A DNA stretch of 64,000 bases, taken from assembly GCA_947179485.1 (NCBI GenBank), contig OX359246.1, positions 72,691,508-72,755,507 on the forward strand, written 5' to 3'. This DNA is from Allacma fusca. Lineage: Eukaryota; Arthropoda; Collembola; Symphypleona; Sminthuridae. Made by a program: the position numbers and the translations under genes. A model generated the notes under the pieces. That model did not search any database and was not told the DNA's origin. It saw only the letters and a program-made list of their open reading frames with translations. Numbering within the stretch: position 1 is the stretch's first letter; each line of letters opens with the position of its first letter. Positions 3,301 to 55,335 of this stretch are shown here, piece after piece.

Positions 3301-3781
3301 TTGTTTTATTGTTTGGTGTGCTTGATCCATATGCGAACACATTCTTGTTAGTCCTTATGTAGTATCCCTGTATCCCCTAAATCCTTATCCCATAAAGTAT
3401 TACAAGGCATATTCACATTCCAAACCTCACACTAACTTTCTTATTTGTTAATCTATTTTGACTTTCCTTTTGCATTTTGAAAAGGCTTGGATCTCACAAT
3501 ATGGAAGGTTTGATATAATACACCTTCAAAATTGTCTTTCCGTCATCAGATACTGATAACTAAAGTTGGACTAAAGTGAAATGTACTCATCGTCAGACTT
3601 TAGTAGGACATTAAACCATCAATCCTACTCTACGTGCGGTTTCGAAAGACCAACAGTCCTTGCGATTAGAGCAATTCTTGACTTGCAGAATGGTTTCAGA
3701 ATTTTTGGTCTTTTATATTAAATATTTTGACAAAGGCTTGAATTCCAATTGCCTTTTCTGTCGCATTCTATTTCCTGTCAG
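334..3781. other. Intergenic, transposon relics
   Basis: No convincing exon is seen. Two blocks stand out by composition: 1840-2140, made of degenerate CGGTTTCGG/CCGGTTC words, and 2580-3170, made of AGTGGTAG words followed by GC-rich CCCGGCC/CCCGCTCG words. They resemble the word-filled interiors of the intact hAT-type elements further right, but I could not find paired termini or target duplications, so they are called relics only. The rest is AT-rich without recognisable signals. Confidence 0.4.
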
Positions 3782-5352
3782 GGCCGGCACTGTTACTCTT
3801 TGCGTTTTATCGGCAGTTAGTAATATCATTTGCAAAATTTGCTCGCCCAGATTTGACACCATTTGAATTAGGCTTGGACGGAATGCACACAACTGACCCA
3901 CCCGAGCATGGGTTTGTAAATATAACAATGTCCTTGGTGATTGATAAGGAAATAACGAGTGCTAGAATTCGCGAGATGTTTCAAAATCGTATTTTACCCC
4001 TACAAAATGAGAACGGAGAGAAAATTTATCAGAAACTCACCCAGTACTACACAAGTTTCATGGGATACGCTTTCTGGGCAAGAGATCTCAAGTTCGATCT
4101 CCAAAACCACGTCCAGGACTACAACTATGAAAATTTGTTACAACTTCCAGCGCCCTCTGACATAACAACATTAAAAGTTGTGCTATCGAAACTGATCCAG
4201 CTACCATGGAAACCACATCGAAGTCATTGGGAAGTATTAGTAGTCCCGAATTTTTCCCATGAAAAGGGTCAAAGCAGCCGTAAAACTCTACTGATATTTC
4301 GCTTCGACCATGGACTCTGCGATGGATACAGTCTCGTCGGCCTGTTTCGAAATTTATTTCAGTCCCCATTCCTGATGCCTGGTTTAGCCCGCAATGAGCG
4401 TCTTTTAACTCCCTGGGAGAAATTTACAATCTTACTTAAATTGCCGTATGTAATGTTACGTCCAATGATTAATTTTGCCCAGGTGAATAACTTCGACAGG
4501 TCAAAGTTCTCTGATGACTTCATTTGTGACATCAGCGAGCCATTTAAAAATGACCAAATTAAGTCAATCAAAAGAAGAATTGGGGTGGAGTTTGCTTCGG
4601 TGATGCATGGCGGAATTAGTGCAGCCCTGTCTTATGCCTACAATGTGACAAATAATATTCCACCCAAATCTATAGAGGTTACGTCGGTTTTTCCTCTTAC
4701 AAAACATCCCGGTGGGGTTTGTAACCACTGGTATATTTGAGAACTCAATGTTTTATAATATTGGAATCAAATTTCTGCAGTAATATAGTGATCATTTTGA
4801 GATTAGATCCTTCATTGTAGGTTATCTTGCACCTTGGAATTTCCATATAAAATCAGCGATTCTTCAGTTGATCGCATTCGGAGAACGGACTCTGTCATCA
4901 AGGAAACTGAGAGGAAACTTTACCATTACACCTACAATTACTGTACGCGTCTTTTATCACTCCTCCCTGTGCGGATGGCAAGAAAAATTGTATCAATGGG
5001 TACTCAACTGGGTCCCGTGGTTGATATTACCAGCCTTCCTTGTACATCATCACGAGAATTTGTTGATAACGGGGAGATCATCGATTCATTTGTGGCACTG
5101 AATCCTAATTCTGGGATTGGTAATAACTAATATAGCATTCTTATGGATTGCATCAATTGACATCAAAACCCTTCGAAAAATTTAACTCAGTCTTTTCGGT
5201 TTTTCGGAATAGTGGTCTCAGCTTGGGGAGTGAATAATAACCAAAGGATTTGTTTTAACATGGTTGGAAATGTGTTTGGCAGTCGAATACCTGCTGGAAT
5301 TTTGTCGTCCACCTTCATGCAGGAAATTATTGCTCTGGAGAGGGATCAGTAA
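3782..5352 (+). CDS. WS/DGAT-like O-acyltransferase (wax ester synthase family), 5' end uncertain
   Basis: Three exons, 3782-4730, 4821-5119 and 5213-5352, joined by introns of 90 and 93 bp with GT-AG ends. The joins keep frame and encode about 462 residues plus an unseen N-terminus. Family enzymes esterify fatty alcohols or diacylglycerol with acyl-CoA, usually at the ER or lipid droplets. Seen: a hydrophobic N-terminal helix (GPALLLFAFYRQLVISFA), then the acyltransferase motif as DHGLCDG at 4306-4326. This is the HHxxxDG motif with the first His replaced by Asp and the second, catalytic His kept. SHWEVLVV precedes it (PLWxxxLV-like block); HPGGVCNHW ends exon 1 and the Trp codon is split by the intron. 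The C-terminal exons match the usual family tail in layout. No ATG is visible: 3779-3781 is a good splice acceptor (CAG after a pyrimidine tract), so an upstream exon is likely, but its donor was not found. Substrate unknown. Confidence 0.8.
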
Positions 5353-10670: not shown

Positions 10671-10706
10671 TATATAAAGGCGATGTTGGCATGGATTCCT
10701 CAGTTT
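10671..10706 (+). promoter_or_regulatory. Core promoter: TATA box and TCAGT initiator
   Basis: TATATAAAGG at 10671-10680 is followed by TCAGTTT at 10700-10706. The A of the initiator (10702) lies 31 bases from the first T of the TATA box, the spacing known for arthropod TATA/Inr promoters. The predicted transcript would have a 109-base leader before the ATG at 10811. This promoter supports the two-exon model of the gene downstream. Confidence 0.75.
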
Positions 10707-10810: not shown

Positions 10811-11881
10811 ATGAAAGGTATGAACGTTTTGATTAAATCCATCAGTGTTTGTAAATTTCTTTTCATTTGGTTAAAACTAATTACAATTGTTTATGTAAGT
10901 CATCAATTGTACTATATACCCATGAATATTTTATTGTGTTCTGCAGACACTAACAACAGGTTGGAATGCGCCATTGACAGAGGGTTAATCTATTTGGAGA
11001 CCATATTTGAAAAAAATCCGTGGGCATTTTCTGCAACTTCGTACTCAAAAGACAGGATTACATTTACAGATAACTATGATTATAAATTTACTGGATACCC
11101 GGAAACGTTTACCCACTTCCTTGCTCTGGACCTTCTGGGAAAGCATTTGTCGCCTTTGGTTCGATCCAAACTTGCAGAATCCTTACGACCCGCAACATTG
11201 CAAACGCTGAACTATTTTGTAGACCCTTTAATATTTCCTGATGACGTCGACACTACCTCATTGGGATATACGACACTTCTCAAAGCAGGGGTTTTAACAG
11301 AAGACAGCACTTTACCTGTGGCAGAGACAATTTTTGGAAATGTTGATGACAACGGGATAGTTGAACTTCATTTCAAACCAGCTGAGGACCGAAGAAAAAA
11401 TACCATATGCGCTTGCGTATGTGCCAATGTTTTGCATCTTGCCTATACACTCCGGCAAGAATCGAAATTGCAAAAGACGGAGAATTATGTATTTGATTGG
11501 CTCAGGTCGGGAAACTGGAAACAGGGAACACTATACTATCCAAGCGGGTTTCCTTTCTTGTATTATTGTTCCAATTTTGTTAAATTGAACTACAGAGTAC
11601 AGAAACGATTTAGACCAGTGCTTCTTTCAGCTATTGAAAATTCTTTGGTGGATTGTCGGCTTCCCTTGGATTATGCACTTTTGTTGTTAGCATTGGAGAA
11701 TTTAGGTCAGCGGGACTATTCGGATGAGATTTCTGAAATATTGCTCGAAATGCAAGAAGACGATGGGAGTTATGCACCAGATGCGATTTGGGGAGACAGG
11801 CACGGTGTACTGTACGGCGGAAAAGCTTTTTCTACCATTGTAATTGTAGGGGCTCTTACAGCTGCTGCTAAATTTCTATAA
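10811..11881 (+). CDS. Terpenoid-cyclase-like single-domain protein, copy 1
   Basis: Exon 1 is 10811-10817 (ATGAAAG) with donor GTATGA; exon 2 is 10947-11881 after CTGCAG; the intron is 129 bp. The product has 313 residues. It resembles the alpha-helical barrel of squalene-hopene and class II terpene cyclases. DVDTT at residues 102-106 (11243-11257) is a variant of the DxDD acid motif, and a QW-like block (QEDDGSYAPDAIWGDRHG) lies near residues 272-289. Other visible traits are a Cys-rich TICACVCANVLHLAY segment and a hydrophobic C-terminus without a clear anchor. There is no signal peptide; the in-frame hydrophobic stretch before exon 2 belongs to the intron. The length is about half that of squalene-hopene cyclase, so only one barrel is present. 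Family known: such cyclases protonate isoprenoid substrates. Inferred: this one might act on, or merely bind, a prenyl compound. The nearest relatives I can think of are microbial, so horizontal origin is possible. About two-thirds identical by eye to the copy at 22851-23897. Confidence 0.82.
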   Translation: MKGMNVLIKSISVCKFLFIWLKLITIVYVSHQLYYIPMNILLCSADTNNRLECAIDRGLIYLETIFEKNPWAFSATSYSKDRITFTDNYDYKFTGYPETFTHFLALDLLGKHLSPLVRSKLAESLRPATLQTLNYFVDPLIFPDDVDTTSLGYTTLLKAGVLTEDSTLPVAETIFGNVDDNGIVELHFKPAEDRRKNTICACVCANVLHLAYTLRQESKLQKTENYVFDWLRSGNWKQGTLYYPSGFPFLYYCSNFVKLNYRVQKRFRPVLLSAIENSLVDCRLPLDYALLLLALENLGQRDYSDEISEILLEMQEDDGSYAPDAIWGDRHGVLYGGKAFSTIVIVGALTAAAKFL

Positions 11882-11921
11882 ACGTAATTTTATATACTTA
11901 AACCACTTTTATAAAATGAAA

Positions 11922-11927
11922 AATAAA
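11922..11927 (+). terminator. Polyadenylation signal of cyclase-like copy 1
   Basis: AATAAA lies 41 bases after the TAA stop codon at 11879-11881, giving a short 3' untranslated region. Confidence 0.6.
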
Positions 11928-13299
11928 AACAAGCATGTGCATTTCATGTATGAGCATCAATGTATTGGATAATTGTATTGTATAAAACGATATATAATTA
12001 TTTTAAAACTCTTTATGAGGTATAGCATCCAATACGTGCTTACATTTTCTGCTGGGAAATACATTTCTTGTATTCCCAGCTTTTGAGATTTGTAAGTGTT
12101 TTCAATTCATGAATACAACGGACGCCAATCCATTTATGATGCAAAACTAGAAGGTCGATCAAACTTTGACCAGCTATTTTCCAGGCAGTAGATCCTCGTC
12201 AGGTAACTGTTTGAATATTTTGTACTTGTATTGCTACTTAGCCTTATTAGATGAACAAAATAGGTTGTGAGAGAATTTAAAGCATACAATATCACAATAT
12301 GTAGATACGTTCTCTTCTTGGCCCGTTGAAATAATGATTTCACACATAGCAAATAATACCATAACGGGAACGCTACGATGTAATAGATGACACTATTTAT
12401 TACTTTGGAAAATTTTGTTGTAATTCGATTTACTGGCTTTTGAGAGAATTACATACGCAAAATAATTTATTCATCATTTTGCTACGAATTTTCATTGTCA
12501 AAAGTAGGGACTTACTATTCTGATTTTTGATATATCGTTATAATCTAATATTTATGATTTCATGTTATTTTGTCATTTATTGATGTGTTACAAATAAAGA
12601 TTTACATAATACAATCGCATTTAGGTTATGTCAAATGACAATGTTTTGCAGTTTTTGCCCTCCCAGTTGCAAAGTCCCGAAATGCTTGCCCATTTTGGGG
12701 TAGCTTTAGAAAATGGCCTGTTTTTGGGCATTGCCATATGGTTCAAATTCGTTGTGATAAAAGTAGTTTTCTGACTTAATTGCGAGTAATTATCGATATT
12801 TAAAATATTTTAAAAATATTATTTACTATTGCCTTTAATGTATGTAGCCTTTGTTGTTACAAAAATAAAATTCCTGAAGATTTGGAAACGGGGGGTTTGA
12901 ACATGGGAAGTTGCTTCCATATGAGACAACTGCTCGGGGGCTTTTATGTCTTTTCCCGGAAACTACTTTTTAGAGGATTTGTCCATTTGTTATAGTTTTC
13001 TGTTTACAGTTTTTGACTTTCGTTTTGTAGATATTTATTTCATAATTTAATTATTTTCTGAGTTAAGGTGACATTGAAAGTTAACTATACTTTTGAATTA
13101 ATCAAAATACGCAATGGCTGCTCTATTCTATTTTTTATTTTTTACTCACTACATAATTATTTGTTGTTGTACTGTAGATGAAAGCCATACATGGTTCGAA
13201 AATGCATGTAGAAATAAATCTGCAAAGTAACATGTTTTAAGATTCATTCTATTTATCTACAATAAGGAAATAATAAGTTTGTGTATTAAATTTGTTTTT
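11928..13299. other. Intergenic, nothing firm
   Basis: AT-rich DNA. Around 12650-12750 a patch with GCCC and TTGGGCATT words recalls the AAAATGCCC-word element at 26813-27889, but no termini are seen. No gene recognised. Confidence 0.4.
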
Positions 13300-13307
13300 T
13301 GCATATG

Positions 13308-13606
13308 TTATTACACGGCGTTATACATGGCATAATTTTTATAAAAATCGTAATCATACCCGAAATATAATAATCATAGTAAATAGAAGCCATATTTATT
13401 GTATAATTTCCGACATAACGATGACGGAAAGTAACGTCTATTTGATATTTGCTAATGGTAACGGAAACTAATGCTAGTATATTTGTTTTGCTTTGTAGTA
13501 ACGGAACGGTAACTGAATTTTCCATACAATATTTAGTAATTTAATGGTAATTAACACCAATTTTAAATTTTATAGTATAATAGTGTAACATAACGTAACG
13601 AGAATG
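13308..13606. mobile_element. Probable degenerate hAT-type miniature element, TAACGG words
   Basis: The segment is flanked by an exact 8-bp repeat TGCATATG (13300-13307 and 13607-13614). Inside are GTAACGG/CATAACG words. Read inward, both ends carry CGTTAT at the same distance (11 bases) from the boundary, but the outermost bases do not match the hAT consensus. The flanking word is nearly palindromic, so chance is a real alternative. Confidence 0.4.
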
Positions 13607-13614
13607 TGCATATG

Positions 13615-14490
13615 CATCTCCGAATAATGAAAACAATTTTGGAAAAAAAAGTCGACAAAATTTTTCTTGAAACTAGAGGAAAAATAGTATCGCTATTTTG
13701 ATCAGATATTTTGTTTTGTTGTTCCTTTATAAGCCGGAAGAAGAAAAACAATATGGAAGATAAGTGTTTAGCCCATGAAATTGATAGGGGAGTTTTGCGC
13801 TGTTCCTGACGAATCTCAAGCTAGAATTATTATAAGAAATCAACAGGGTACGTCGTAAATATGCTTTCTGACTATTTCAAAAACTTGCCATAACCAGCTT
13901 TAGACCTTAACGTAAAACAGGTTACTCTTAAAAATTACACAAAATTGCTGTTTCAATTGTCGAAGTTCTGGAACGTCTGCTTGCTCTTAAAGTTTAAATA
14001 ATTATTGAGTTGGTCAGAATTGTATGTATGCGTATGCCAGAATATAAAATATTCAGAGTTTGTACAGTAGCGCCAGAAGATATAAATAAAATGTATTCGT
14101 TTTGACAATTTAGACAAATTGTCCTGCACGCATGCGCATGCGTACCATGCTTCAAATTATTACTTGATAAACGGCATTTTATTGGTTAACAAATTTGTTT
14201 ACCTGCTGTGAGACAAAATGATAAAATTATTTATTTATTTGAAATGTTTTTTTACCGGGGTAGTTTACAATTCTGTAGCTTAATAAGTTCGAAAATTACA
14301 CTCATAATACAACAACATTACAAACCATAGCAAAGAATTATGACAGCGTTACTCAATGAGTAGCCAACATCAAAAGGCCATCTGTGAACACTATTTTGAA
14401 GCCATTCTACACGTCCTATGTCTCCAAATGTTGAAACGTTTCCCTCCATAATAAGGCTGCCATTGTGATTGTTGATACTTAGAATTCTGA
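13615..14490. other. Intergenic, nothing recognised
   Basis: AT-rich sequence downstream of the TPPP gene. No exon or repeat was recognised apart from short A/T runs. Confidence 0.5.
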
Positions 14491-14496
14491 TTTATT
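14491..14496 (-). terminator. Polyadenylation signal of the TPPP gene
   Basis: TTTATT on the + strand reads AATAAA on the gene strand, 40 bases after the TAA stop codon at 14536-14538. Confidence 0.6.
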
Positions 14497-14535
14497 TTTA
14501 TGTAACGGATTCTTCGGAACGTTTGGAACTTTTGT

Positions 14536-15577
14536 TTACTTTGGGGGTGGAACTGGGGATGGGGATTTGCTCCCCTCCGACTTATCCCCCAGTTTTGTTT
14601 TAAAAGATGATGTATATCCGGAAGTATCCTTCACATCCCTTCGGCCCTCAATCCCACGGCCCTTTCCGGTGGAATCAAATCGTTCCTTGTGGGATCCGGT
14701 GTACTTGGATGTGTCCGTCAGTCGATCTACAACCCCTACATGAGTTGCTTTGGTGGCGGACGAGAGACCTGGTCTCCCACAATTTATGAGCTTATCCTCA
14801 AGTTCCTTCGGCTCAATCTTCTTTGCCGCCGCAAAATCTTCAATGTACTTCTTAAAGTCGTCAAAATTTATTTTCTTAGCAGTTCTGCAAGGGACAATAT
14901 TAACATATTGATAATTTCACACACTCCTAAAATCAACGAATGCCTTTTGTACATAATGCAACAATGTTAGGTCCTTCTGCTTACAATTAAGGGATCTGTC
15001 AATAAAGAAACGAAGGAGTTACAACAATATTTGCCGTATAAAGGATTTTCATATAATATTAAAGGGCTTGCTTCTACTTTGAATTTTTTGAGAAGTCTTT
15101 ACAGACTCACCTCATCACAACAAACTGACTAGAATGTCCCTAATAAAAAATCCCTTAGATTTTAAACTTGAAGACGTTTTCGTGGATATGAGCAAGAAGC
15201 TATTCATTATTTATAGTAAACAATCAAGTAATAGGTAGGTGACGTCAGAGACACAATTATTATGCATTGACCTCGTTTAGCTTGAGTCAACCGACTTCAG
15301 AGATCATTTTTATACGAACACTGTTTGTTTTGAATAATTATTAAGAACTCATTACTTACTTAAATTGCTTTTTAAAGTGAATAGAAGTATCTGTGGTAGT
15401 AATTTTTTTCCCATCAATAACATGGGCCTGCTTCATCCATTTGTCGCTGTTGGTCAAGGATATTTCCTTCCCATCCGAATTTTTATCCCCAAACCTGCTG
15501 AAGGCGGTGAACTGATCTTTTAAGGTGGGTTCTTGGGGTGCAGCCTTGTCGGCAGAGTCTTCAGCGGCGTCACCCAT
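14536..15577 (-). CDS. TPPP: Tubulin polymerization-promoting protein (TPPP/p25-alpha family)
   Basis: Two coding exons on the minus strand: 15577-15360 and 14884-14536, joined across a 475-bp intron (donor GTAAGT, acceptor TTGCAG). The join completes an AAA codon and gives 188 residues, near the usual 170-220. Members bind tubulin, bundle and stabilise microtubules, and are cytoplasmic; the Drosophila relative is called ringmaker. Seen: the p25-alpha core from about residue 18, with [33 protein letters not shown] and [17 protein letters not shown]; then [20 protein letters not shown]; and the hallmark C-terminal block [19 protein letters not shown]. The tail ends in a Pro-rich PSPVPPPK. The ATG follows a CAG acceptor directly (15578-15580), so at least one non-coding 5' exon lies upstream, beyond or within the mobile element at 15624. 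No frameshift or missing block is seen. Confidence 0.95.
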
Positions 15578-15623
15578 CTGAAAAGAAAGTGTGGAGGTAA
15601 TTTAGTTTCACTTCTCTCATATA

Positions 15624-16457
15624 CAGTAAAACCTGTATATAATGGCCGTTCATATAGTGGTTTCCTGTCAATAGTGGTCAAATTTGGCTTCCCGGTCCCA
15701 TCTCCTATCCTTTATCATAGGGAATTCCCTCTATATAATGGTTTTCTATATAGTGGTAACCTGTTCATAGTGGTCTAATGAGCATGCCCCTTCAGTTCAA
15801 AATACAGCTTAAAGCACCTGTATATAGTGGTCAACCAGTCAGAACGAAGGGATACAACTCGCGCAAACCCGAACCAATGACACAGCTGTTTGAGTTTAGT
15901 GCAACTAAAGGCATTTTGGGGCGTTTTTATCTCCAGCCGTTTAATATTGCATGTATTTGTACTAAATCAAACGATGGTTTATTGGCTATATTATTAGTCC
16001 TTTGAAGTATTTCAATTAATTAGTGGTTACTTTTAATCATTTTAAAAAATTATTATTAGCTTTAAAAGATCTCAGATGATTTAATCATCCTGAGGTAATT
16101 CGAAACGAAACTTCGTCGAATAAATAGGTCGACAAATATTTTTACCCAATTTCTCTATGGAAAATGCCTAAAAGGCAAGGTGCTTTGAAGATCATTGCAG
16201 TATTCTTCAAGATTCCCTTGGCAAGGTGAAAATTCGAAGTCTCAATTAGAAGTAAATTAGTGATTATTTTTAAAAAAGTGTAAAATTGCTGGTTGTCAAT
16301 AACATATGCAATTCAAACTGCTGGATTCCTGCTCGTATGCCTGTATATGTATGTTTATATAGTGACTTTTGACCACTATATACTTATACAGTGGTCCCTG
16401 TCTATAGTGGTCAAATTTCGGCGTCCCTAGGAAAACCATTATATACAGGTTTTACTG
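15624..16457. mobile_element. pogo/Tigger-like non-autonomous element, 834 bp
   Basis: The terminal inverted repeat CAGTAAAACCTGTATATAAT is perfect and runs about 22 bp, with TA duplications at 15622-15623 and 16458-16459. TATAGTGGTCAAATTT words recur in both ends in opposite orientation. There is no transposase. It lies 46 bp upstream of the TPPP start exon, so it is in that gene's 5' intron or its promoter region. Its short frames (15533-16005) follow the repeat words. Confidence 0.85.
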
Positions 16458-16459
16458 TA

Positions 16460-19400
16460 TATACATAATTACACGGGTACGGGGTTCCTATTCACGTTTG
16501 CTCTCCTTTTTCACAAATTAGTAAATTCCCTTTAAAATATTCCATGTAGTAGGAAATTACTTCTAGGCGAATAGTATTTGCGGTCACATGGAATATAATT
16601 TTACAACTTCGCACTTTTTGTTTTCATTCCGGAGTAAATTTCTTCAGAATGTGTTTTGACTTTTGACTCGCATTTGTAGGAAATGTTGTGGGCTTTCCAT
16701 AGATTTGAGTGGTTACCCTTGGTTGGAAATTGTAGACATGCAAAAATGTATAGAGCTATATAGGTTAGAAAAAAATTCACTTCAGGAGTGTAATAATTCA
16801 AAGAAACTACGCTGGTGAAATTTCTGGCAACTCCACAATTTTATCAGGGCTGAACCAGCCGTTATAAAAAATACTTTAAATGATCAGCGTATGTATGTCA
16901 AAAAAATTACTGTAACAGGAGGAAAGGCTCAAGATGGAAGATAGCATTAACGTAAAGGAAGCATGTCCCCCGTGTTTTCCTCTGTTATTTCTGAGACTGA
17001 ATTTCTTCCAACTTTGTCCCGGACTCTTGCCAGGAATGTCCGCAATTCCCAGTGTAATCACCTAAGAAATTCCTTTCTGAAACGTTTATACAATTTTGTA
17101 CAAAACAGCATGGACAATTTCTTTTTGTCCTAAAATGTTGACTACCTCTTAAAGTTTTTTTTAAAGTTGCTCAAATATTCCCCACTTCCCCTGTTATTTC
17201 CAGCCCATGTTCCCCCCGGAAAATTATTTCAAAAAGAAAACAAAATTCGCTATAAAATAGTGGGAATTGCTCATTTCCCAGGTTACTTCCTCATATGGAA
17301 TACAGGGTGTCAACCATCAGGATATCCCTGTACAAATATGCTTTCTAAACCCTACAAACCCAAGAGCAAAAATGTAGCTCACATAGCATCCTCTATCTGC
17401 CCTCAGAATTATGGTAACCCACTTCTCAGCTTCTAACCTTGGAATATCACCATGTACGTTCCATAATGCAGAAACGTACAGAAATATTTGCTAATCTTCT
17501 ATTATAATGGACGTACTTATATATGTGTTTCTAATCCAATAATAAAACACTTAAGTTAATCCTAAGGATAGCAAGACTCTTCCCCCTAACATTTTGTAAA
17601 TATCCACATTCTTTCAGCAGTCTATCGCAGACAATCATAATTTTACCCCAATTGTAAAAAATATCAATTGTATTACAATTAAATACACAAAAAATACAAG
17701 GAGTAGTAAATACCTCAAAGAAAAAAACATTCAAAGCCCTCCACTATGAGAGCATCAAAAAATATTACTTATTTTTACCTGTAAAATGATACAAACCACC
17801 TAAATCTCGAGCCTTATAATAGTAAATTGATTGGACTTTAGAAAAGAAAGTTTCTAGTCGTAGCTCCTTCCAAATATGTCACTTACATTGAATTAAGTAG
17901 CGGGACCTCCTCGGGAAAAATCAAGTATCAAGTACAGTAGCTCCGACTCTCTCACAAAAATGTCAACGGAATTCTTTTGGGCTCAGACTAAAAATGTTTA
18001 CACAATAATCCAAACCAGCGGAATCCTATATGGAGTCACTTCCTCACTTGGAAAATAAACCTAAAATAAGACAAAATCAGAGCTCCGCTCTTGTCAAGAA
18101 GGGAGTGTGGACAAGTTGTTGGATGTGGGAGATTTGAGGACGAAAATAGATCAAATCCAGAAAGCTTGGGACCGCGTCTCCTCCAGCACAGTAGTGTATT
18201 GGGGGGATGTTATCTTTCTTGATACTTGTAACCCAGTGCAATGTGGGGAATTTGGTCTGCGGCACTCACTCCACTAAAAATGTATTCCTCCTATTATACA
18301 CGTAGTATATACATATGCTTATGCACACCCGTATGATGACTAGGACTCTAAAATTAACTCACATCTCTTAGAGGCACTTATTATGTTCTCCGGATGTGCC
18401 TATAAAATCCTCAACTAGTGTGTGTTTGTATACGTCCGTGAGTCATAATGAGTTATGATGACATGCCCAGAGATAAACATGACATATGTTGGGGAGACCA
18501 TATGTATGTAATTACATGGGTTAAATGGGACTCTCTCTCTCTCTGTAGTACCTCCTGGATGTTTTACTACAAATTACTTACAGGCGGTGCGAGGCTCTCA
18601 TCATCCAAAACTTACTGATACTACCACATACATATACAGAACACACTGGCCATCAAACAATAAAAACGAGTGGAAGTGCTAATTTGTGTAAATAAATGCA
18701 CTCTGCAGGAGAAGGAGAGGTGATGTCAGCGGACTCGTACTATTACTATTACAACTGCCTCTGAATTATCTCGGGGACTTTCAATGGAATGGCCTCAGTT
18801 TTCTATTAAACCTAATCAGTCCTGCACACAGGCTCCCATTAGGTATTTCAAGAACGTCCAACCACAAATAATTACCCTATGATCATCTCAATACACTGGA
18901 CAGAGTTGAGAGTCTCTCTCTCATTACCACAGACTCTTTGCAATAGTTGAGAGACCTATACCTATATAAATATATATATAGTAGATAGCGATAGCAATTC
19001 CTGGGTGCTCATGGGATCCTTCCCTACAGTAGATACCTGTATGATTGTATGTATGTATGTATATACAATGAAAGTTTGACACAACTGTAAAGAAGAGCTA
19101 CATTTTTAAATGGATAATTCTGGGGACCATGTACACAACTTAGGGCTCAAATGTCAATTTGTTTGTCAGTCAAAGGCTTGGAAATGATTGGATAACACGG
19201 GGTTGTTGGGGCTCAGGCCATGTATACCGACCATGAAAGAATTTATCCTTATCTGCAGGAACAATGAGTGAGATTCTCCCGACAGTTTGCATTTTGATTG
19301 TGATTTATAGGCAAATAATGACACCTCCCACATAACCGCACGAAATGTCATCCCGATGAGGTTTTAGTTGTAGAGAGATACAGAGAGTATACATTAGTAA

Positions 19401-22400
19401 CACATATTAAATTACTGATTAATTAATAAGCTTCCCATATGCTATTTTCCTTAAATTTTGACACTTTAGAATGTCCTAAATTCCTCGGAACTGAAAATGA
19501 GTCCCTCGGTTTGAAGCCTCATTTTGGCTCTCTTATATGAGGATGGCTAAATTTTAAATCCGAATTTTATATCGTGTAGTTTTTTAAGGATGTCTCCTGT
19601 GAAAATGGTACTTCAGTAATTATAGGTAATAGGTTCGTATTGTAATGATCCAGCTGCGTTTTATCATTTGCTCACACGTCATCACCACAGAGTGAAGATA
19701 GTTTGATTCTATGGCTATAAGCGCTGCGCTCAGCCCTCGTGATGAAGATTATTATTATTGGAAATGCGAAATGACTGAATTGTCAATATTGCAACTTGCA
19801 ATTATTATCGTATGAAATTCTAGATTGGTAAGTGTAATGCTATGAGAATTGAATCAATGAATGTTAAATGTGCTGCGGATGAGGATATGCTGACTATACC
19901 TGACTGATCCTGCCATTCTAGAATCAGATTTTTTCGAATAAAGACGTACACTTTCGTTATAATATGTAATTTACATTTGATGTTTACAATAATTAGAAGG
20001 ATTTTACTGTAGTCATATAACCAGGCATGGAGAAACACAATTCTGCACATCACACAAGGCTACTAATCCCATTGAGCAGTAAGTTGTGGGACAGAAAGCT
20101 CCTTACATAAATCTACTTACGCCCCGTATGCACGAGTGATTTTAAAATTCCGGTAATAAATAATAACTAATGTTAATAATGAAGTTAAGTATTCCTGACT
20201 GACGTGACAGTAGTTTCGAATGAAGTTATGGTTGTAGTGGCACTCACAATAATCTATGTATATGTGCAGACTATGCGGACGGACCACTTTGACATAATTG
20301 CCCTCATATCCCTTGTAACTTCCCAGCGGAGGAACCCCAGGAATTCAGTCATCACTATATTTATAATCCTAGAGTTGGACTCTGGTGCCATAACACATCA
20401 TAGTAGTTCTGATTTACAAATTATAGTTTCTGTGAAAGTCATCCACGGTCCATTATGTTACTTGACTGAATTTGCATGTACATATATATGTAAATCCCTA
20501 GCGATAGCTAGCAGCCTCTTTAAATCAATAACTATACAGCCGGGGTAGATACAGGACTTGAGAAAGGTGTGGAAAGACAGGATTTTAATTTCTGTCACGT
20601 CACCCTGTTACTGTAACGTCTTAGGAAGGGAGAATGCTAATTTTGAGTGCTAGAACAACACTTGCACAATAGCACACTCTTGAAGAGGAACTGCTTCCAT
20701 AACATCTGACAATTATGTTTGAATTAACACTCAACTTTTTCCCTGCCTTGTTTACCATCCTCATGAAAGCCTCCCATAATAATAATTCTGAGGATTCATC
20801 AGTATAGTGAGTTTTTGTATATATGCAGTTGTTTATTGTGACATTTCGTAAGTTTATTTGTTTTTAATGTGTCATAATCGGATTAGAATAATGTAAGGGA
20901 TCGGAGGTAAAAAGCTGGCTTGGAGCAAGAGCAACAAAAAGGTAGTTTCATTGGGCTCGACCATTAAAGTAATGGTTATGTCTCAGTTTAAGTGATCGTC
21001 AAGTCAGAAAAATAGGAAGCGTAAACTATACACACGTAAACTATACTTTACTCATCAGAGACTAGAGATACATACAACGATACAAGGTACATGGATGATT
21101 TCGTACTTGTAACAGAAGTCGTTTTGTAAAGGAAATTAAAGTGACGTCACCTCTCTGGGCCCCATCAAACTTGACGTGGGAAAGGTCAATTTGAAATCCC
21201 TACCTATTATTTTTGACACTATTTCACAATTTTATGATGATTAGAGTTTGCAAGGACAATTGCCAATTCAAATGGGGTGGAAATCGCATCTCTCCATCTC
21301 TTTATACACTCTGTTCACGCCAAAGGAACTTGTTAATTATTATTAGTAATGACTGTTTAATGCAAGCAACACATGCCTCCATGAGAGATAGCGTATAAAC
21401 AGGACTCACAGGTACTCTCACAACAGGGGAAGACACTTCACTGCAGAATTATAGCTTGGAGCAATTCTAATAGTTACTTTAATTATTATTGTAAACTCTC
21501 TTCAAAACAAAACACTCTATGCTGTGTGAGAAAGTGGACATATTATATATTATTATACTATTATATACATACATACATACATAAGAGGTGTAGACGTGCG
21601 GGACGGTCCTTGAGGAAATCAGATTTGGTTAGGGAAATTTGCTTAAGGTTTGGGGAAAACTGGAACTATCTTAAGCTTTTGACACACGAAATTAGTAGGG
21701 ATTCGTGTCTTTAAGTGCGTTTTGCCCCAATTGTTACGTATGTATATAATTGTTTCTTGTGAAATATATATGGTACAAGCCTATAGCTGCTATTCTCTAA
21801 TCAAAGTGGATTGTTCAGTTAGTTCGTATTTCCTTGTCGAAGCATATGGATTTTGTCACACTCGAACACAAAAATGTTCAACCTCGCTCTCAAAATCGGT
21901 TGGTGAACTGATGTTCACTCAACCTTTGCCTCAATTCTGGGCTTAAGTCAAATCTGCACTGGCACTCCCTATTTGAGTAGTAGTATAATTTTCCATTAAA
22001 ATCCAACAATATTGTAGGCACTGGTTTAAAGCGAATCCAGTAATCTTTAATCTTTAAATTTGATTGGGATTATAGTGATCAATGCGCGGATCAACCAGGA
22101 CCAAGGATGTAAAAATTGTGTGCGGAAATTGAGGGCAGGCTGAAATACGGGAGCTAATTGAATACTTGCGCCCGACTATTGGGATGAGGGTTCCAAAGGC
22201 TTGATGAACAGAGAGACTTTTCACAGCTTGCCCCAAATCATATTGGATGACCGACTGATAAATTTATCCCGACAAGGCAGGACCCTGCCACACTTCCACA
22301 CAACGTTACTGAGGTTCAAATATTGTCCCAACTTCAAATCTTCCTATGGATTCTTCTACCTTTGTCAGAAGCTGAATGTCTTCTGAAGGAAATTTACTGT

Positions 22401-22689
22401 AAAGATGAAGCCTCCTCATAAATTCCGGACATCCTCGTTCCGCACCTCATTGCTTGAAATTGGTGGCAAGTTTTGACATGCTCAGAATGTTGCGCGCAGT
22501 GATTCGTTTGCATTACATTTTAAGGTCCATCAAATTTGCTTCAAACTCAACTGTCAACAATAATTTTTTTAAACAACATTTTTTAAATAAAACATTGGAG
22601 TAATTACATTACAGAATGAGACAAAACTATTGTCTCAGAGTAGATATTCATGTGGGTCATTTGAAATCAGAAAATTGGCTTTAAAAATG
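16460..22689. other. 6-kb gene-free stretch
   Basis: No coding exon could be supported on either strand. It holds scattered simple repeats (a CT run near 18532, TATA runs near 18966, GTAT repeats near 19050), and otherwise unremarkable AT-rich DNA. The 5' non-coding exon and promoter of the TPPP gene should lie in its left part, but no clear core promoter was identified. Confidence 0.45.
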
Positions 22690-22695
22690 TTTATT
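22690..22695 (-). terminator. Candidate polyadenylation signal of cyclase-like copy 2
   Basis: TTTATT on the + strand reads AATAAA on the gene strand, 155 bases downstream of the stop codon at 22851-22853. Confidence 0.4.
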
Positions 22696-22850
22696 ATCAC
22701 ATTATTATAGAATCACGCCTGCGAATTTTTTAATGGACTTGTAACTTGTGAACAAGTCTTACCAGCCACTATAAATCCTGGAAATGAATCTATAGTAAGT
22801 TAGAGAAAAATTGTAAAATTACGGAAAACAGGAAAACAGACACCAACGAA

Positions 22851-23897
22851 TTAAAGAAATTCAGGGGTAGCTGCCAGCGCACCCACGATTAAAATGGTTG
22901 ACAAAGCTTTTCCGCCCCACAGAACACCATGTCTGTCCCCCCACATTGCATCTGGTGGGAAACTTCCGTCCTGTTCTTGCATTCCGAGTAAAATTTCAGA
23001 AATCTCTTGTAAATGGTCTGTCTGGTCTAGATTTGTCAATGCCAGCAATACTAATGCGTAATCCAAGGGAAACCGACAATCCTGGATGGAATTTTTAATG
23101 GCGGCGAGAAGAACTGTTCTGAATTTTGCTTGTACTTCGGAGTCCATGCCAGCAAAGTTAGAGCAATAGTACAAAAACGCGTAACAATTTGGGTAGTACA
23201 ACGTTCCCCGCTTCCAGTTTCCTGACTTGAGCCAATCAAACACGTAACTTTCCGTCTTTTCCAATTTTGATTCTTCTCCGAGCGTGTAGGCAAGATGTAA
23301 AACGTTGGCGCATGTGCAGGCACAGATAGTCCCCTTCCTGCGTTCTTCAGTTATTGGTTTGAAATGAAGTTCAACTACGCCGTTGTCAGTCACATTCCCA
23401 AATACGGTCTTCGCCACAGGTAAAATGCTGTCTTTCGTTACAAGACCTGCTTTCAAAAGTGTGGTGTAGCCCAGTGATGTAGTGTCGACTTCGCTTGGAT
23501 ATATCGATTCATTTACAAAATAGTTGAGTGTTTCCAATTTTGATGGATGTAAGCAGTCTTCGAGTTTTGATCGAACTGCAGGAGCAAAGTGCTCCCCCAG
23601 GAGATCCAGAGCAAGGTAGTGGGTAAATTTTTCGGGTTGGCCACCATATTTGTGGTGATAGGTATTCGTAAAGTTAATCCTGTCTTTTGTGTACGAAGTT
23701 GAGGAAAATGCCCAGGGCTTGTTTCCAAACAAGGTCTCCAAGTAACTCAAACCTCTGTCAATGGCGGACTCCAACCTATTTGAATCTGAAAAATAATATT
23801 TGTTTCAGGTTGTAATGGGATTGTTAATGGACGTCAAAGGGAAAAGATAGAAAATAAAAATTACAAATGATTGGGAATAATAACATTTATCTTCCAT
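22851..23897 (-). CDS. Terpenoid-cyclase-like single-domain protein, copy 2
   Basis: Minus strand. Exon 2 is 23785-22851 after TTTTTCAG. The best exon 1 is 23897-23885 (ATGGAAGATAAAT, donor GTTATT, intron 99 bp), giving 315 residues and the same intron phase as copy 1. The alternative ATGGAAG exon, exactly parallel to copy 1, would need an AT donor in place of GT. The protein parallels copy 1 throughout: DRGLSYLETLF near the start, EVDTT at residues 103-107 where copy 1 has DVDTT, the Cys-rich TICACTCANVLHLAY block, VFDWLKSGNWKRGTLYYPN, and the QW-like QEQDGSFPPDAMWGDRHG. The first acidic residue of the DxDTT motif is Glu here, which may alter activity. No stop or frameshift interrupts it, so it looks like a live gene. 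Opposite orientation and about 11 kb spacing from copy 1 mean it is not a simple tandem duplicate. Confidence 0.82.
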
Positions 23898-41600: not shown

Positions 41601-44008
41601 GTGAATAATTGAGGGGACAGTTCATACTCGTCATGCTCAATTCATTTAACAGTCCACACACACTGGACCCCATTTCCATGTCTTCCTTTTTCAAAGCCTT
41701 TCTTTTCCCAGGACGGTCTCTCAGAGCATTTTATCCCGTTAGAATTTTAGCGCCAGTTATTTTAAATCTACAGGGTTTGGGCTCTAGGAATGAGAAAATT
41801 TCTTCTAATCTCATTTTGCCCCAGTTTAATAAATTCTGGATCGATAATCCAAATCATTTCACCTCCAGGCAGGGATGAGGTGTATTTTAAAAATTAAACT
41901 CAAATTTTCTAAAGTCATTTTTGTAAAGATTTTTGTTTAAACGATTTTCTGAAAAAAACCAATTAATTTATTAGAAAATTTAGCTCAACTGTCGTTGTTA
42001 TTGGGATAAATAGTTTTTTGTTATGTTGTAATTGTATATGTAGGGTATTGAACTTTTTCTAATATTTCTAGTTCATGTAATGTCCACAAAAATTTAGGGG
42101 AGGGATATTTTGTACCCTAAATTTTGAATTTAGGAGTGAAACTGGTTTTAGATAATTTAAAATGCAAACTGGAGGATGAAGTCAGTCGTTGTGGAGAAAG
42201 ATGTTCTTTAATGGTGAAGTAGGTAGAGGGTGGGAATATTATGAGACACCCTGCGTATAAAATACAGCCTTCTTCAAGGGAATTGACTTTTACAGAATAA
42301 TCCAGAGACAATTCGTCCGATCAATTCCTTTTGCTTTGGGATTCAATTCAACTCCTTTTCCATGTCCACTTTAATTTATATAATGTCCCTTTACAACTAC
42401 TCTCATCCTGTCTGCCAAATGTGGAATTAAATATAAAATTCCAACTACTCTTTTCGTATGGAAATAACATTGAGACGTTTTCAAATTGACGATTCCGAAT
42501 CACACAAATGTACGACGTCCTTATTTTTTTATGTCGTTTTGGGGGAATAATCGGATAGGGCTGGAGTTTTTAAATCTGGAATAATGATTTTCTATTTTTT
42601 ATTAGTTCAGAAATAAAACAATTTTAGCACTACATATTTTACAGAATTAAAAATTGCACATTTTGAAATTTCGAAAAAATTCTATTGCAATTTCGAAAAC
42701 AAAATATTTTGTAATTTCTAAATTAGCACTTTTTGCAATTTCTAAAATGAAATATTTTGAAATTTCAAAAATAGCATATTTTGCAATTTCTAAACTACAT
42801 AGTACTTTTTGTAATTTCAAAAATGAAATATTTGGCAATTTCGAAAATAAAATTACGTTGCAATTTCTAAATTAGCATATTTTGCAATTTCTAAATTAGC
42901 ACATTTTGCAATTTCTAAATTAGCACATTTTGCAATTTCAAAAATAGCACATTTTGCAATTTCAAAAATAGCACATTTTGCAATTTCAAAAACAGCACAT
43001 TTTGCAATTTCAAAAATAACACATTTTGCAATTTCAAAAATAGCACATTTTGCAATTTCAAAAATTACACATTTTACAATTTAAAAAATAGCACATTTAG
43101 CAATTTCAAAAATAATAAATGTGGCGATTTTCTAAATAGCGTGTTTTGCAATTTTAAAAACGTAACGTATCGCAATTTAAAAAGTAGCACTTTTCTGAAA
43201 TTTGAAAACGCAAATTTTTTAAATTTCGAAAACCGTATATTTTGCAGTTTCGAAAGTATAACCCTTAACAATTTAAAAAAAAAACATTTAGAGAGATGAG
43301 AAACATCCAGAGCAGACATTAGAATTGGAGGAAATGAGCAGCATCAAGAATAGAATAATTCAATTATTCCTGAAGGTCTCGGAGCGGGGGGAAGATTGGT
43401 TTAGTGAAAATCACCGTGTGGTTTCATGGTTCGCCCCCATAAAGAAATATTTATCCGGAGAAGTAACGTGTGTTGTTTGATGAATTCCCTCCTGAGAGCC
43501 GTCTCAAAGGACTTTGTTGACAAGTAATTGAGTTTTGAAGTGACTCGGAGTTGAGAATGAGTTCTTTAATACGGAGCTTTTACTCGAGCCGCGAATAAAT
43601 GCGCAGCCAGGTTCCATACTCCAGCTCTCCAATTACACTGACCTTTGATCTTCCCAGCAAAATATACTCTTTCATCCTGCCCATTGTTCCGGAGTCTCCT
43701 TCAATCCTCCCCACACCATGGGTGGGTTCACAATTGTAAATGGCACACTTTCATCCATTTCCTTCTCAATAGGAGCCCGGCTCCAAATGGTACAAAAATC
43801 CCAATCCAAGACAATACACCAAACCTTGTCATACTTTTCTCCCCATACAAAAAATACAAGCAATTAATGCAGAGCGTCATATATCCCTTCCATACTTTTT
43901 GCTAAAATCAATACATAAGCTACATTTCCCCTAAAAATGCAAAAGGTACTAAAAGTGCATTTAAAATTAAAATGGGCATTACAATCCCTAGGATATTATT
44001 GTCTTACA

Positions 44009-44048
<40 letters not shown>

Positions 44049-46527
44049 CACACTGTACAGAAACCCTTGGGTCTTATAATAAGCTTGAGTCTGTCCATTA
44101 TGTGATGAGCTTACATTTAATCTTTTAGTTCACTCCGAGGATTACCAAGGATTTTTATTTTCACGGGCTTCACATTAGCAGTCTTAACACAAACTCACTC
44201 AAAAATACAGTCACCTCTGTATCACACGCAAGGATTTTTTTCTATTATTTAATTTATAATATTTCCCTGCTCCATAAGAAAAAGAAGGGGATCCTCTCCA
44301 AGGAGTGGACACTGTATCTGTAGCATTTGGATTACATCATAGAGCTATGTATATATGTACATATGGCTATGGCTCCACAGGCCTTTATACACTCAATCCG
44401 TGCTAATTGAATCCAACCCCAGGAAAATGAAAGAAGGTCAAAAGTTGAGGATTATTTCCTTCTCTGATTGTCCCTGCAGGAGTGGAGTGAGCTGTAGCGA
44501 TGTCCCTCATTAGAACACATGGACGTACATACATACATCCCCATCAAGACGTTATCAGAGCGTTAGGCTCATAATATTGTTACGTCTTACATTTCTACTA
44601 AATAACGTAAGTAAATACGTGAGAGTAAATAAATGTAAGATGATTAGACTGGCAGGGTTATAGCAGAATGTGCTTGGAGTCAATTAAAATAATTCCTCCC
44701 CCGCATCGGTAGCATCGATCGCATCGATTGCATCGGTCCGGAGGAAACCCTTCCCCGCATCTCCACAATGGATAAAGAACAATATTCTAAACTCATGAGA
44801 TTCTTCTCCTGGATGTCAAAGAAAAATAGGGAAAATGGCTTGGAAATTACAGAGTATAAGAATCCCTGACCTCCATAGAGACTCTTCCTGAATTGGAAAT
44901 CCAAAGGTAGGATTGGGAAAAAAGAGGAGTAAGAGTACGTGAGGTAGTGGAAAGATCAGACGGGATTGCTACTACTACATAGTAGCAAGTGGGAGCAAGC
45001 CTCAATATAAAGGGAAAAAATAAAAAAGGCACAGAAGGTGTCCCAATGGTCTAACCCTATTTGATAAGGCAGAGCATGCATGAAACCAACACACACACAC
45101 TCACACACACACACATACACACACATACAAACTCACACTCACACTCAATGACTCTGAGGAGGAGAAAGATCTGACTTTTACTTTTGTTTCAGGCGGCTCA
45201 AATGTGTGTAACGGGGTCAGGATGAGTGAGTCAATGAGACAACTTCTGTCATGTACAGTCGACTCGTATTACAAGCACTGGCTGAGGAATTGCATCGGAT
45301 TTTGGCCCGATGTGGGAACTCGCATCGTCGAAGTATTTACATTTAAAACTGCTACACAGTCTTATAACACCATAACAATTTCCCTGTCATAGAATCTAAA
45401 TTAACTTTTGACAAAAAGGGAAGGGATTGATTTTGACAGGAGCCCTTATGTCAAGACTTCACTGTATAATCTCCCCACTAATAGTTATAGTCCTCACGTG
45501 TCACTTGGAAGAATCCATTTAGAAAAAATTCATTTAGAAAAAAATTAAGAAAAAATTCATTCAGAAAATTTCATTTAGAAAAATTCATTTAGAAAAATTC
45601 ATTTAGAAAAATTCATTTAGAAAAATTCATTTAGAAAAATTCATTTAGAAAATTCATTTAGAAAATTCATTCAGAAAAATTCATTTAGAAAAATTCATTC
45701 AAAAAAATTCATTTAGAAAAATTCATTCAAAAAAATTCATTTAGAAAAATTCATTTAGAAAAATTCATTTAGAAAAAATATACATTGTCCAGCGGTATTT
45801 CTTATAAAACAATAATTGTATAAACTCCATGAAAGAATTAATTGTAATTATTGGAACACACATAAGTTCAAGGGAAGTACAAGGTTGGAGCGTGGAGATT
45901 CACACGAGGCTAATTAATATTAAAATGTATGTACATTCCAGAGGTAATTATACACATTACGGCATACAATCCAAAAGGAAGTGAACAGGAGAAGACTCAA
46001 GAGCTCCATGTCCTGTCCGAATATTTAATTAAATTGAAACCCGTCCAGGATAAAATAATGAGCCTCTCTCTTGGGACAGGGATCGATGAGGAGTTTCTGT
46101 ATAATATGCTATTGCTGTATAGGTATAGATAGTCCCAATATTATTGACATTTCCCCTCAATTTATATACACGTACATACATACACACTCTTATACACTGG
46201 ACATGGACAGGAGCAAACAGAGAGGGAAAAACAAGGAGCCTTATAGGAGCCAAGAGCCAATCAATACATTGAATAATAGATGGACATTTAATAGCCCGTA
46301 GAGTTTAAGCAGTAACCCTGCATGCATCCCTTTCAAACTGTTTAAAACTCCAAGAGTCTAAAATATTGCTGGGTATATAATCCCCTTGTAGGAATTTTCT
46401 GCGTATACTTTTATTGGGACTGTCAAAAATTTTACTGGTCCGGATCCCTCAAAACCGGTCCAGTGACAAGCCCAATCCTTACCCGAGTCTCATCCTCAGC
46501 GTCCTCACTCCTCCGTCCCTTGGACAT
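32615..46527 (-). CDS. Two-transmembrane PPxY protein with Asn-rich tail
   Basis: Four exons, all joined in phase 0: 46527-46483, 39912-39388, 38364-38212 and 33526-32615 (introns 6570, 1023 and 4685 bp; donors GTAAGG, GTAAGA, GTACTT). The product is 544 residues. Exon 1 encodes MSKGRRSEDAEDETR and is the least certain. Exon 2 gives an acidic Glu-rich run, a His-rich stretch, Ser-rich linkers and TM1 (YGIGLVCVGATLNWLGFAQ). Exon 3 gives TM2 (YLGVACVISGSFCVCIAMC) and a basic flank. Exon 4 is a disordered tail with PPDY, EPPPYDEA and APPPYTREY, which would bind WW domains such as those of Nedd4-type ubiquitin ligases, then Ser/Asn-rich and poly-Asn tracts. The two-TM plus PPxY layout recalls TMEM51-like and other small membrane adaptors, but I do not recognise a family. 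No signal peptide. Likely a membrane adaptor or ligase substrate; inference only. Confidence 0.75.
32638..32692. repeat. AAT/ATT trinucleotide tract coding poly-Asn
   Basis: An imperfect run of ATT triplets (AAT on the coding strand) encodes the Asn-rich end of the PPxY protein. A second tract of ACT/ATT triplets at about 32818-32890 encodes the Ser/Asn-rich stretch. Such tracts are prone to length change but keep frame. Confidence 0.7.
33527..38211 (-). other. Intron 3 of the PPxY gene (4.7 kb)
   Basis: AT-rich intron between the TM2 exon and the PPxY tail exon. Includes a TA-flanked CAGTAGCCTCTCCCTATCAC start at 34697, resembling a pogo-type end without a partner. Open frames at 34282-34895 and 36424-36970 show no domain. 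Nothing else is recognised. Confidence 0.5.
38365..39387 (-). other. Intron 2 of the PPxY gene, with a possible alternative TM exon
   Basis: The 1-kb intron between the two transmembrane exons contains an open frame on the gene strand (39086-38799). The part at about 38995-38900 reads YVLTVLRIGSVLSLVGSFV and resembles the TM2 exon (YVDPLRYLGVACVISGSF). An AG lies just before TAT in phase 0, and GTAAGA follows TCCTTT in phase 0, but the pyrimidine tract is poor. Could be a decayed or alternative exon, or chance. Confidence 0.25.
42645..43285. repeat. Tandem array, 24-bp unit
   Basis: About 26 imperfect units of type GCACATTTTGCAATTTCAAA plus AATA. The period is exactly 24 where measured (starts at 42901, 42925, 42949). 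Units are most alike in the centre (42860-43080) and decay towards both edges, the usual sign of unequal exchange in the middle. The frames across it only reflect the period, 24 being a multiple of three. Confidence 0.9.
44010..44047 (+). repeat. A38 homopolymer
   Basis: A run of 38 A residues. The upstream 80 bases show no retrotransposon-like features that I recognise and no flanking target duplication was found, so a retroposed tail is possible but unproven; the length may also be a sequencing artefact. Confidence 0.7.
44703..44738. repeat. Four 9-bp GCATCGRTN units
   Basis: GCATCGGTA, GCATCGATC, GCATCGATT and GCATCGGTC follow without gaps, a small GC-richer array in AT-rich intron DNA. 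ATCGAT also occurs within it. Confidence 0.8.
45089..45146. repeat. Interrupted CA microsatellite
   Basis: CA repeats interrupted by T and AA, on the + strand, inside the presumed intron 1 of the PPxY gene. Confidence 0.85.
45256..45464. mobile_element. Candidate miniature TA-flanked element, 209 bp
   Basis: Starts CAGTCGACTCGTATTACAAG and ends so that the inward read is CAGTGAAGTCTTGACATAAG, with TA on both sides (45254-45255 and 45465-45466). The inverted repeat is imperfect. The same size as the one at 60458-60666 and similar CAGT ends suggest pogo-type MITEs. Confidence 0.4.
45518..45778. repeat. Tandem array, 14-bp unit
   Basis: About 18 units of AAAAATTCATTTAG with 13-bp variants and CATTCA/CATTTA changes. 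Located in the presumed first intron of the PPxY gene. Confidence 0.9.
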
Positions 46528-54649: not shown

Positions 54650-55335
54650 TTTTATTCGAAGCAAAATGGGCTAAATGCATTTTGGAATAGAGGCAAAATG
54701 TGCTAAATGCATTTTGTACCAGAGGCAAAATGTGCTAAATTCATTTTGTACCAGAGGCAAAATGTGCAAAATGCATTTTATACCAGAGGCAAAATGTGCT
54801 AAATACATTTTGTACCAGAGGCAAAATGTGCTAAATTCATTTTGTACCAGAGGTAAAATGTACTAAATGCATTTTGTACCAGAAGAAAAATGTACTAAAT
54901 GCATTTTGTACCACAAGCAAAATGTGCTAAATGCATTTTGTACCAGAAGAAAAATGTACTAAATGCATTTTGTACCAGAAGAAAAATGTATTAAATGCAT
55001 TTTATACCAGAGGCAAAATGTGCTAAATTCATTTTGTACCAGAGGTAAAATGGGCTAAATGCATTTTGTACCAGAGACAAAATGTGCTAAATGCATTTTG
55101 TACCACAAGCAAAATGTGCTAAATGCATTTTGTACCACAAGAAAAATGTGCTCAATGCATTTTGTACCAGAAGAAAAATGTACTAAATGCATTTTGTACC
55201 AGAAGAAAAATGTACTAAATGCATTTTGTACCAGAAGAAAAATGTACTAAATGCATTTTGTACCAGAAGAAAAATGTATTAAATGCATTTTGTACCAGAG
55301 GCAAAATGTGCTAAATCCCCTTTGGATTAGAAGCA
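54650..55335. repeat. Tandem array, 32-bp unit
   Basis: About 21 units of 32 bp containing TGCTAAATGCATTTTGTACC and AGAGGCAAAA. The period is exact where checked (54721, 54753, 54785). Two unit types alternate in blocks: AGAGGCAAAATGTGC and AGAAGAAAAATGTAC. Because 32 is not a multiple of three the unit is read in changing frames; the open frames across it are not considered genes. Confidence 0.92.

What the first reader, a model, noticed from the sequence alone, without database searches (positions are those of the whole stretch)
10811..23897. Two intact terpenoid-cyclase-like single-barrel genes with a [D/E]VDTT motif in an animal genome
Two diverged, uninterrupted paralogues (313 and 315 residues) share a DxDTT-type acid motif, a QW-like block and an identical tiny-exon/one-intron structure. 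Classical class II cyclases have two barrels; here there is one, and animals normally have only the large lanosterol synthase. The pair may represent an uncharacterised family, possibly acquired from microbes and then given an intron and an arthropod promoter. This is my strongest candidate for a new system.
Basis: partly seen in the sequence, partly recalled or inferred. Interest (0 to 1): 0.8.

Follow-up and report, generated by a model that had tools for sequence, protein, structure and literature searches.

The report
Springtail family of class II terpene cyclases
A springtail genome carries a family of small proteins that look like ring-forming terpene enzymes of the kind known from a microbial drimane synthase, which would be unusual in an animal and may help explain the odd terpenes that springtails make.

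The parts
10811..10817 (+). Gene A exon 1 (ATGAAAG, phase-1 end)
   Evidence: GT donor at 10818, in-frame junction with exon 2; similar 7-nt exon candidates in 6 of 16 other copies; no RNA data
10818..10946 (+). Gene A intron (GT..AG, 129 nt)
   Evidence: sequence
10947..11881 (+). Gene A exon 2: nearly all of the stand-alone class II terpene cyclase (313 aa with exon 1), DVDTT motif
10671..10705 (+). TATA box (TATATAAA) and initiator-like TCAGTT, starts 29 bp apart, upstream of gene A
   Evidence: read from the sequence; no promoter test run
22851..23785 (-). Gene B main exon: second cyclase, EVDTT motif
23885..23897 (-). Gene B putative exon 1 (13 nt; the 7-nt donor position used in gene A reads AT here)
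   Evidence: unproven without RNA
14539..14916 (-). Exon of an ordinary animal gene (TPPP / p25-alpha) lying between A and B; shows that the genes sit in the host chromosome
   Evidence: Pfam p25-alpha 2.3e-31
3742..4737 (+). Neighbouring acyltransferase-like ORF (AATase / wax ester synthase); link to the cyclases unknown
   Evidence: Pfam AATase 6.4e-5 (just over its cut-off), WS_DGAT 1.2e-4 (below its cut-off)

Best explanation
Genes A and B are two members of an expanded springtail family of stand-alone class II terpene cyclases, each a single beta barrel of the HAD-TCbeta (drimane synthase) lineage without the phosphatase domain. Inferred mechanism: the protein binds a linear prenyl diphosphate (farnesyl or geranylgeranyl diphosphate) folded in the barrel; the second acid of D/E-V-D-T-T, held by the conserved Tyr of G-[TS]-x-[YF]-Y, protonates the terminal double bond; cation-olefin ring closure is stabilised by conserved aromatics; loss of a proton leaves a cyclic, drimane- or labdane-like diphosphate. 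With no phosphatase domain, the diphosphate leaves intact and is hydrolysed by a separate phosphatase or passed to one of the genome's many class I terpene synthases. Shown: homology, fold of the model, conservation of the acid and its Tyr partner, selection on the protein sequence, native chromosomal setting. Inferred: substrate, product, coupling to other enzymes, physiological role (cuticular or defensive terpenes).
Against: No activity, expression or metabolite data. Two positions essential in AsDMS are altered: Y373 is H in 8, Y in 4, F in 5 copies, and R378 falls in a gapped loop where the springtail rows show K, Q or R; Y373A and R378A (nearly) kill AsDMS. R425 is L or I in 17 of 17 and R513 is R in 8, T in 4, K in 1, W in 4, but AsDMS tolerates R425A and R513A, so these say little. 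Two acids of the AsDMS HAD domain were reported to help hold the diphosphate (PMC9128629, abstract and passages), and that domain is missing here. Model stretches 26-47, 84-86, 88-95, 141-149 and 281-287 have pLDDT below 50, so the pocket is not well modelled; three of five models were weak. The pair L004/L011 has dN/dS 0.45 at dS 0.06, and 4 of 15 pairs gave no ratio. The only globular springtail in PMC11321324 (Sminthurides aquaticus) had no terpenes besides cholesterol.
Confidence: 0.7

Rival explanations
1. Class II cyclase on a substrate without a diphosphate, as in MstE (a prenylated aromatic acid), or on the far end of a long polyprenyl chain destined for cuticular lipid. Same protonation chemistry, different head group; perhaps true of one group of copies only.
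Against: Much closer in sequence and fold to FPP-using AsDMS. Genes A and B keep the Tyr426 and Arg513 equivalents. The cyclised springtail lipids described (poduran, prespatane types) have sesquiterpene-like heads that look to me like class I chemistry (my inference).
Confidence: 0.2
2. A pseudoenzyme or binding protein that keeps the barrel but not the cyclase activity.
For: Two positions needed for diphosphate binding in AsDMS are altered; no activity data exist.
Against: Acid and Tyr partner kept in 17 of 17 copies, across protein identities to B down to 40%; purifying selection.
Confidence: 0.06
3. Contaminating microbial DNA or an assembly artefact.
For: The PDB relatives are microbial; three near-identical copies on chr1 could be an assembly duplication.
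Against: 16 full-length copies on two chromosome-scale scaffolds of a published HiFi/Hi-C assembly, an intron in A with similar candidates in 6 of 16 other copies, a TPPP gene between A and B, GC 0.36 and 0.39 in the 4-kb blocks that hold A and B, as in the rest of the window, and only 25-29% identity to the bacterial enzymes.
Confidence: 0.01

Closest known systems
AsDMS, drimenol synthase of Aquimarina spongiae (HAD-TCbeta; PDB 9mhs, 9m7d-f)
   Same: Cyclase barrel, DxDTT acid motif, Tyr partner, several aromatics; nearest sequence and fold relative found
   Different: Springtail proteins lack the HAD phosphatase half, are 25-29% identical, lack Arg425 and in part Tyr373/Arg513, and form a multigene family; gene A has an intron
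AstC / AacA, fungal HAD-like terpene cyclases (Aspergillus; AstC PDB 22ty, 22tz)
   Same: AstC matches by sequence; isolated cyclase domains of both work alone and release a cyclic diphosphate (PMC13244436)
   Different: Fused HAD domain; AstC is more distant from the springtail proteins than AsDMS; AacA was not compared here
MstE, merosterolic acid synthase (Scytonema)
   Different: 13% identity; substrate a prenylated dihydroxybenzoate (entry titles); no match by sequence up to E 10
SsDMS, drimenyl diphosphate synthase of Streptomyces showdoensis
   Different: 12-14% identity; Mg-dependent (PMC12365925); two barrels (recalled)
Canonical (class I) terpene synthases of arthropods (Chen et al. 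2024, PNAS; paper not held, seen only as a citation in PMC13389597 and PMC12051294)
   Same: Terpene enzymes spread between arthropods by transfer, e.g. mites to a fungus gnat (PMC12051294, passage); 44 class I matches in this genome
   Different: Other fold and chemistry (metal-dependent ionisation; recalled); unrelated family

Membership tests
HAD-TCbeta (HAD-like terpene cyclases) | TCbeta barrel homologous to AsDMS/AstC | tested here: met
HAD-TCbeta (HAD-like terpene cyclases) | DxDTT-type acid motif with Tyr partner | tested here: met
   second acid and Tyr427 equivalent in 17 of 17; first position D in 10, E in 7; T334 position S in 5
HAD-TCbeta (HAD-like terpene cyclases) | HAD phosphatase domain fused at the N-terminus | tested here: not met
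   in the model of gene A the ATG lies 7 nt before the intron; HAD_2 gives 2 exon matches genome-wide, on C10 and C12, none on C1 or C8; AsDMS HAD domain gives none (an empty answer without a positive control). First exons of the other copies are mostly unknown
HAD-TCbeta (HAD-like terpene cyclases) | Converts FPP to a drimane | not testable with these tools
   needs an assay
Class II terpene cyclases (superfamily) | alpha6-alpha6 barrel of the terpene cyclase type | tested here: met
   model of B compared with solved structures; model of A made, not compared
Class II terpene cyclases (superfamily) | Protonation-initiated cyclisation | not testable with these tools
   acid conserved; no assay
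Squalene/oxidosqualene cyclases | Pfam SQHop_cyclase match and two-barrel length | tested here: not met
   A and B have no Pfam match up to E 10 and are half the length
Class I terpene synthases | Terpene synthase C-terminal metal-binding domain (e.g. PF19086) | tested here: not met
   no Pfam match for A or B; class II type barrel instead
Horizontally acquired gene | Nested within or sister to a microbial clade to the exclusion of other animals | tested here: inconclusive
   18 springtail rows separate from 7 bacterial rows at 100/100, but no other animal or fungal genome could be searched

The most novel reading that the evidence does not exclude
An animal runs a two-step, plant- or fungus-like pathway: stand-alone class II cyclases make cyclic diphosphates that the genome's class I terpene synthases then ionise, with P450s finishing the product. 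At chr1 59.39-59.43 Mb a class I synthase, two class II genes, a class II fragment and two P450s lie within about 37 kb. The stand-alone barrels would also be living examples of the separate cyclase that has been proposed to have fused with a HAD phosphatase.
Probability: 0.3. Interest if true: 0.9.

Novelty: new variant of a known kind. Interest (0 to 1): 0.72.

Why it matters
Drimane synthases are described from plants, bacteria and fungi (PMC13244436, abstract); a large family of their cyclase domain in a springtail would extend this chemistry to animals. Springtails coat themselves with unusual terpenes (PMC11321324, PMC11959583, passages); in the passages read, the only cyclase proposed is a putative squalene-hopene cyclase. 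The genes give a direct, testable entry point, and natural single-domain versions of an enzyme type studied so far mainly as a fusion.

Tried and rejected
Squalene-hopene or oxidosqualene cyclase origin: rejected; PF13243 gives no match in the genome (an intron-split gene could be missed). A HAD phosphatase supplied nearby: HAD_2 gives 2 exon matches genome-wide, none on the two chromosomes with cyclases; the AsDMS HAD domain gives none (which the tool says shows nothing without a positive control); other HAD families were not searched. Viral and plasmid relatives: none; the phage and E. coli collections were not searched. Bacterial source: a scan of genome contigs with exact peptides of an AsDMS fragment returned 8 loci, all Flavobacteriaceae by title, and could miss a nearer donor; a profile search of 395 Bacteroidota genomes matched 3: the AsDMS genome itself and two remote single-barrel proteins (L036, L037). 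Donor unresolved; fungi could not be searched.

Gene clustering: by random shifts of 13 class II clusters (20 loci, broken ones included; the fragment L021 left out), a class I neighbour within 10 kb (1 of 13) is not unusual (p 0.096). P450 neighbours (2 of 13) are rarer by chance (p 0.007 at 10 kb, 0.015 at 20 kb, 0.046 at 50 kb), but only 92 of 891 P450 candidates were scored, and three gene families and three distances were tried, so this is a hint only. Prenyl diphosphate synthases are near 0 of 13.

Rows left out: A4 (14 rows) omits L006, L007, L011, L018-L021; L003 and L022 are the same gene and counted once; residue counts use 17 rows (16 full-length plus L011), with L019 apart. AstC is not among the structure-library rows shown (its entries may be later than the library). 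The ORF listing, promoter and Rfam tools were not used to annotate the rest of the window beyond.

Full report
What is there. Two uninterrupted coding regions lie 11 kb apart on opposite strands. Gene A has a 7-nt first exon, a 129-nt GT..AG intron and a long second exon, 313 aa. The two proteins are 70% identical over 310 aa. No third copy lies inside the window.

Where it is. The window is C8:72691508-72755507 of a 392.7-Mb genome. Contig lengths (C1 81,893,619; C8 75,608,127; C91 14,936) agree with chromosome 1 (81.9 Mb), chromosome 2 (75.61 Mb) and the 14.94-kb mitochondrion of the Allacma fusca assembly qeAllFusc8.1 (PMC10427803, passages with tables). Total span is 392.74 against 392.8 Mb, and 91 contigs against 95 scaffolds in the paper. 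The first 10 kb of C91 encode mitochondrial proteins under the invertebrate code. A TPPP exon sits between A and B. Contamination is not a tenable reading.

Active site. By alignment to AsDMS, the proton donor D333 and its partner Y427 are kept in 17 of 17 copies, F281 in 17 of 17, and the F518 position is W, Y or F in 17 of 17; the D331 position is D in 10 and E in 7 (gene B among them). D331A/N, D333N and Y427F abolish AsDMS activity, as do Y373A and Y426A, and R378A removes 96%; R380A, R425A and R513A do not lower it (PMC12365925, section 5 part 1). In the springtail copies the Y426 position is Y in 13 and F in 4; Y373 is H in 8, Y in 4, F in 5; R513 is R in 8, T in 4, K in 1, W in 4; R425 is never Arg. 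The R378/R380 region is a loop with gaps and its alignment is unsure. So the ring-forming machinery is kept while the head-group pocket has diverged, which suggests different substrates or products between groups of copies.

Copy number. Gene B as query gives 24 matches in the genome; a remote paralogue as query gives 23 and no new locus. I read these as 16 full-length single-frame copies, one copy split in two pieces 6.4 kb apart (L011), and four partial or decayed loci (L018-L021), on chromosomes 1 and 2 only. The tool calls its counts lower bounds for large families. Three chr1 copies (L005-L007) are identical or differ by one residue and may be recent duplications or an assembly duplication. 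By a script of my own (Nei-Gojobori type), dN/dS is 0.12-0.31 for the 10 of 15 tested pairs with dS above 0.1 (A against B 0.19), 0.45 for the young pair L004/L011, and not computable for 4 pairs (identical or saturated). The 18 springtail rows form one side of a 100/100 branch against seven bacterial rows; 10 of 21 inner branches are unresolved.

Context in the genome. No squalene/oxidosqualene cyclase C-terminal domain was found (the control rang in 2 of 14 genomes, both prokaryotes, and an intron-split gene could be missed). There are 44 matches to class I terpene synthases, 58 exon-level matches to prenyl diphosphate synthases and at least 92 scored P450 candidates of 891. At chr1 59.39-59.43 Mb lie a P450, a class I synthase with DDCTD and NDIISLEKE motifs, a class II gene, a class II fragment, a second P450 and a second class II gene. 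This clustering is suggestive but statistically weak.

How it probably works. Isolated cyclase domains of the fungal enzymes AacA and AstC turn farnesyl diphosphate into a cyclic diphosphate without their HAD partner (PMC13244436, section 6 part 1). The springtail proteins correspond to that domain. I therefore infer protonation-initiated cyclisation of a prenyl diphosphate, with release of a cyclic diphosphate for another enzyme. Chain length is unknown. The altered Y373 position, the unsure R378 region and the missing HAD domain, which in AsDMS was reported to help hold the diphosphate (PMC9128629, abstract and passages), are the main points against.

Evolution. Two papers propose that HAD-TCbeta enzymes arose by fusion of a separate HAD protein and a separate cyclase (PMC12365925; PMC9128629). 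The springtail genes are separate cyclases of this lineage; whether they descend from such an ancestor or lost the HAD part is open. Transfer from a microbe is plausible, as 809 transferred genes and two terpene-related gene clusters are reported in the springtail Folsomia candida (PMC5490193, passages), but no donor was identified, and other animals and fungi could not be searched here.

Is it in print? In the held library I searched for drimenol synthase with HAD terms (20 of 22 papers listed), class II terpene with animal and transfer terms, springtail terpenes, Collembola with transfer and terpene (13 of 14), arthropod terpene synthases, springtail with class II terms (20 of 82), animal class II cyclases, Allacma fusca with terpene and drimane/labdane with springtails (20 of 954). 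None of the titles or abstract starts listed is about such genes in an animal; the unlisted papers were not seen. PMC11321324 mentions a putative squalene-hopene cyclase in springtails, which could be a glimpse of this family or something else. Chen et al. 2024 on class I synthases in arthropods is not held and was not read. Subscription papers and the assembly's own annotation were not visible.

Noticed in passing
A. fusca genome (G000), listed: 44 matches to class I terpene synthases (PF19086), many as single open frames of about 400 aa, on five scaffolds.
   Followed up: partly
G000, listed: 58 exon-level matches to prenyl diphosphate synthases, far more than I would expect in an animal, including two loci about 0.37 Mb beyond the window on chr2 (L061, L062).
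   Followed up: partly
G000 C1:59393297-59430490 (L058, L060, L009, L010, L021): Possible terpene gene cluster: P450, class I synthase, class II cyclase, cyclase fragment, P450, class II cyclase.
   Followed up: partly
G000 C1:81670076-81679695: A P450 match about 8 kb from the split class II copy L011.
   Followed up: no
L005, L006, L007 (chr1 79.58, 80.06, 79.83 Mb): Three class II copies identical or one residue apart, about 230-250 kb from each other: recent segmental duplication or assembly duplication.
   Followed up: no
G000 C8:38245165-38246678: One locus with three exon matches to the squalene/phytoene synthase family; PMC11321324 found squalene synthase only in Folsomia candida among three springtails. 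It may be another member of the family.
   Followed up: no
window 3742-4737 +: Open frame resembling alcohol acetyltransferase / wax ester synthase, 6 kb upstream of gene A.
   Followed up: partly
window 42649-43208, 45508-45777, 54625-55340: Tandem arrays with units of 24, 14 and 32 bases.
   Followed up: no
L036 997-2028 and L037 964-1920 (unnamed Bacteroidota genomes): Remote single-barrel cyclase-like proteins without any Pfam match up to E 0.01; L036 is followed by an integral membrane protein that looks like a UbiA-type prenyltransferase (my reading, untested).
   Followed up: no
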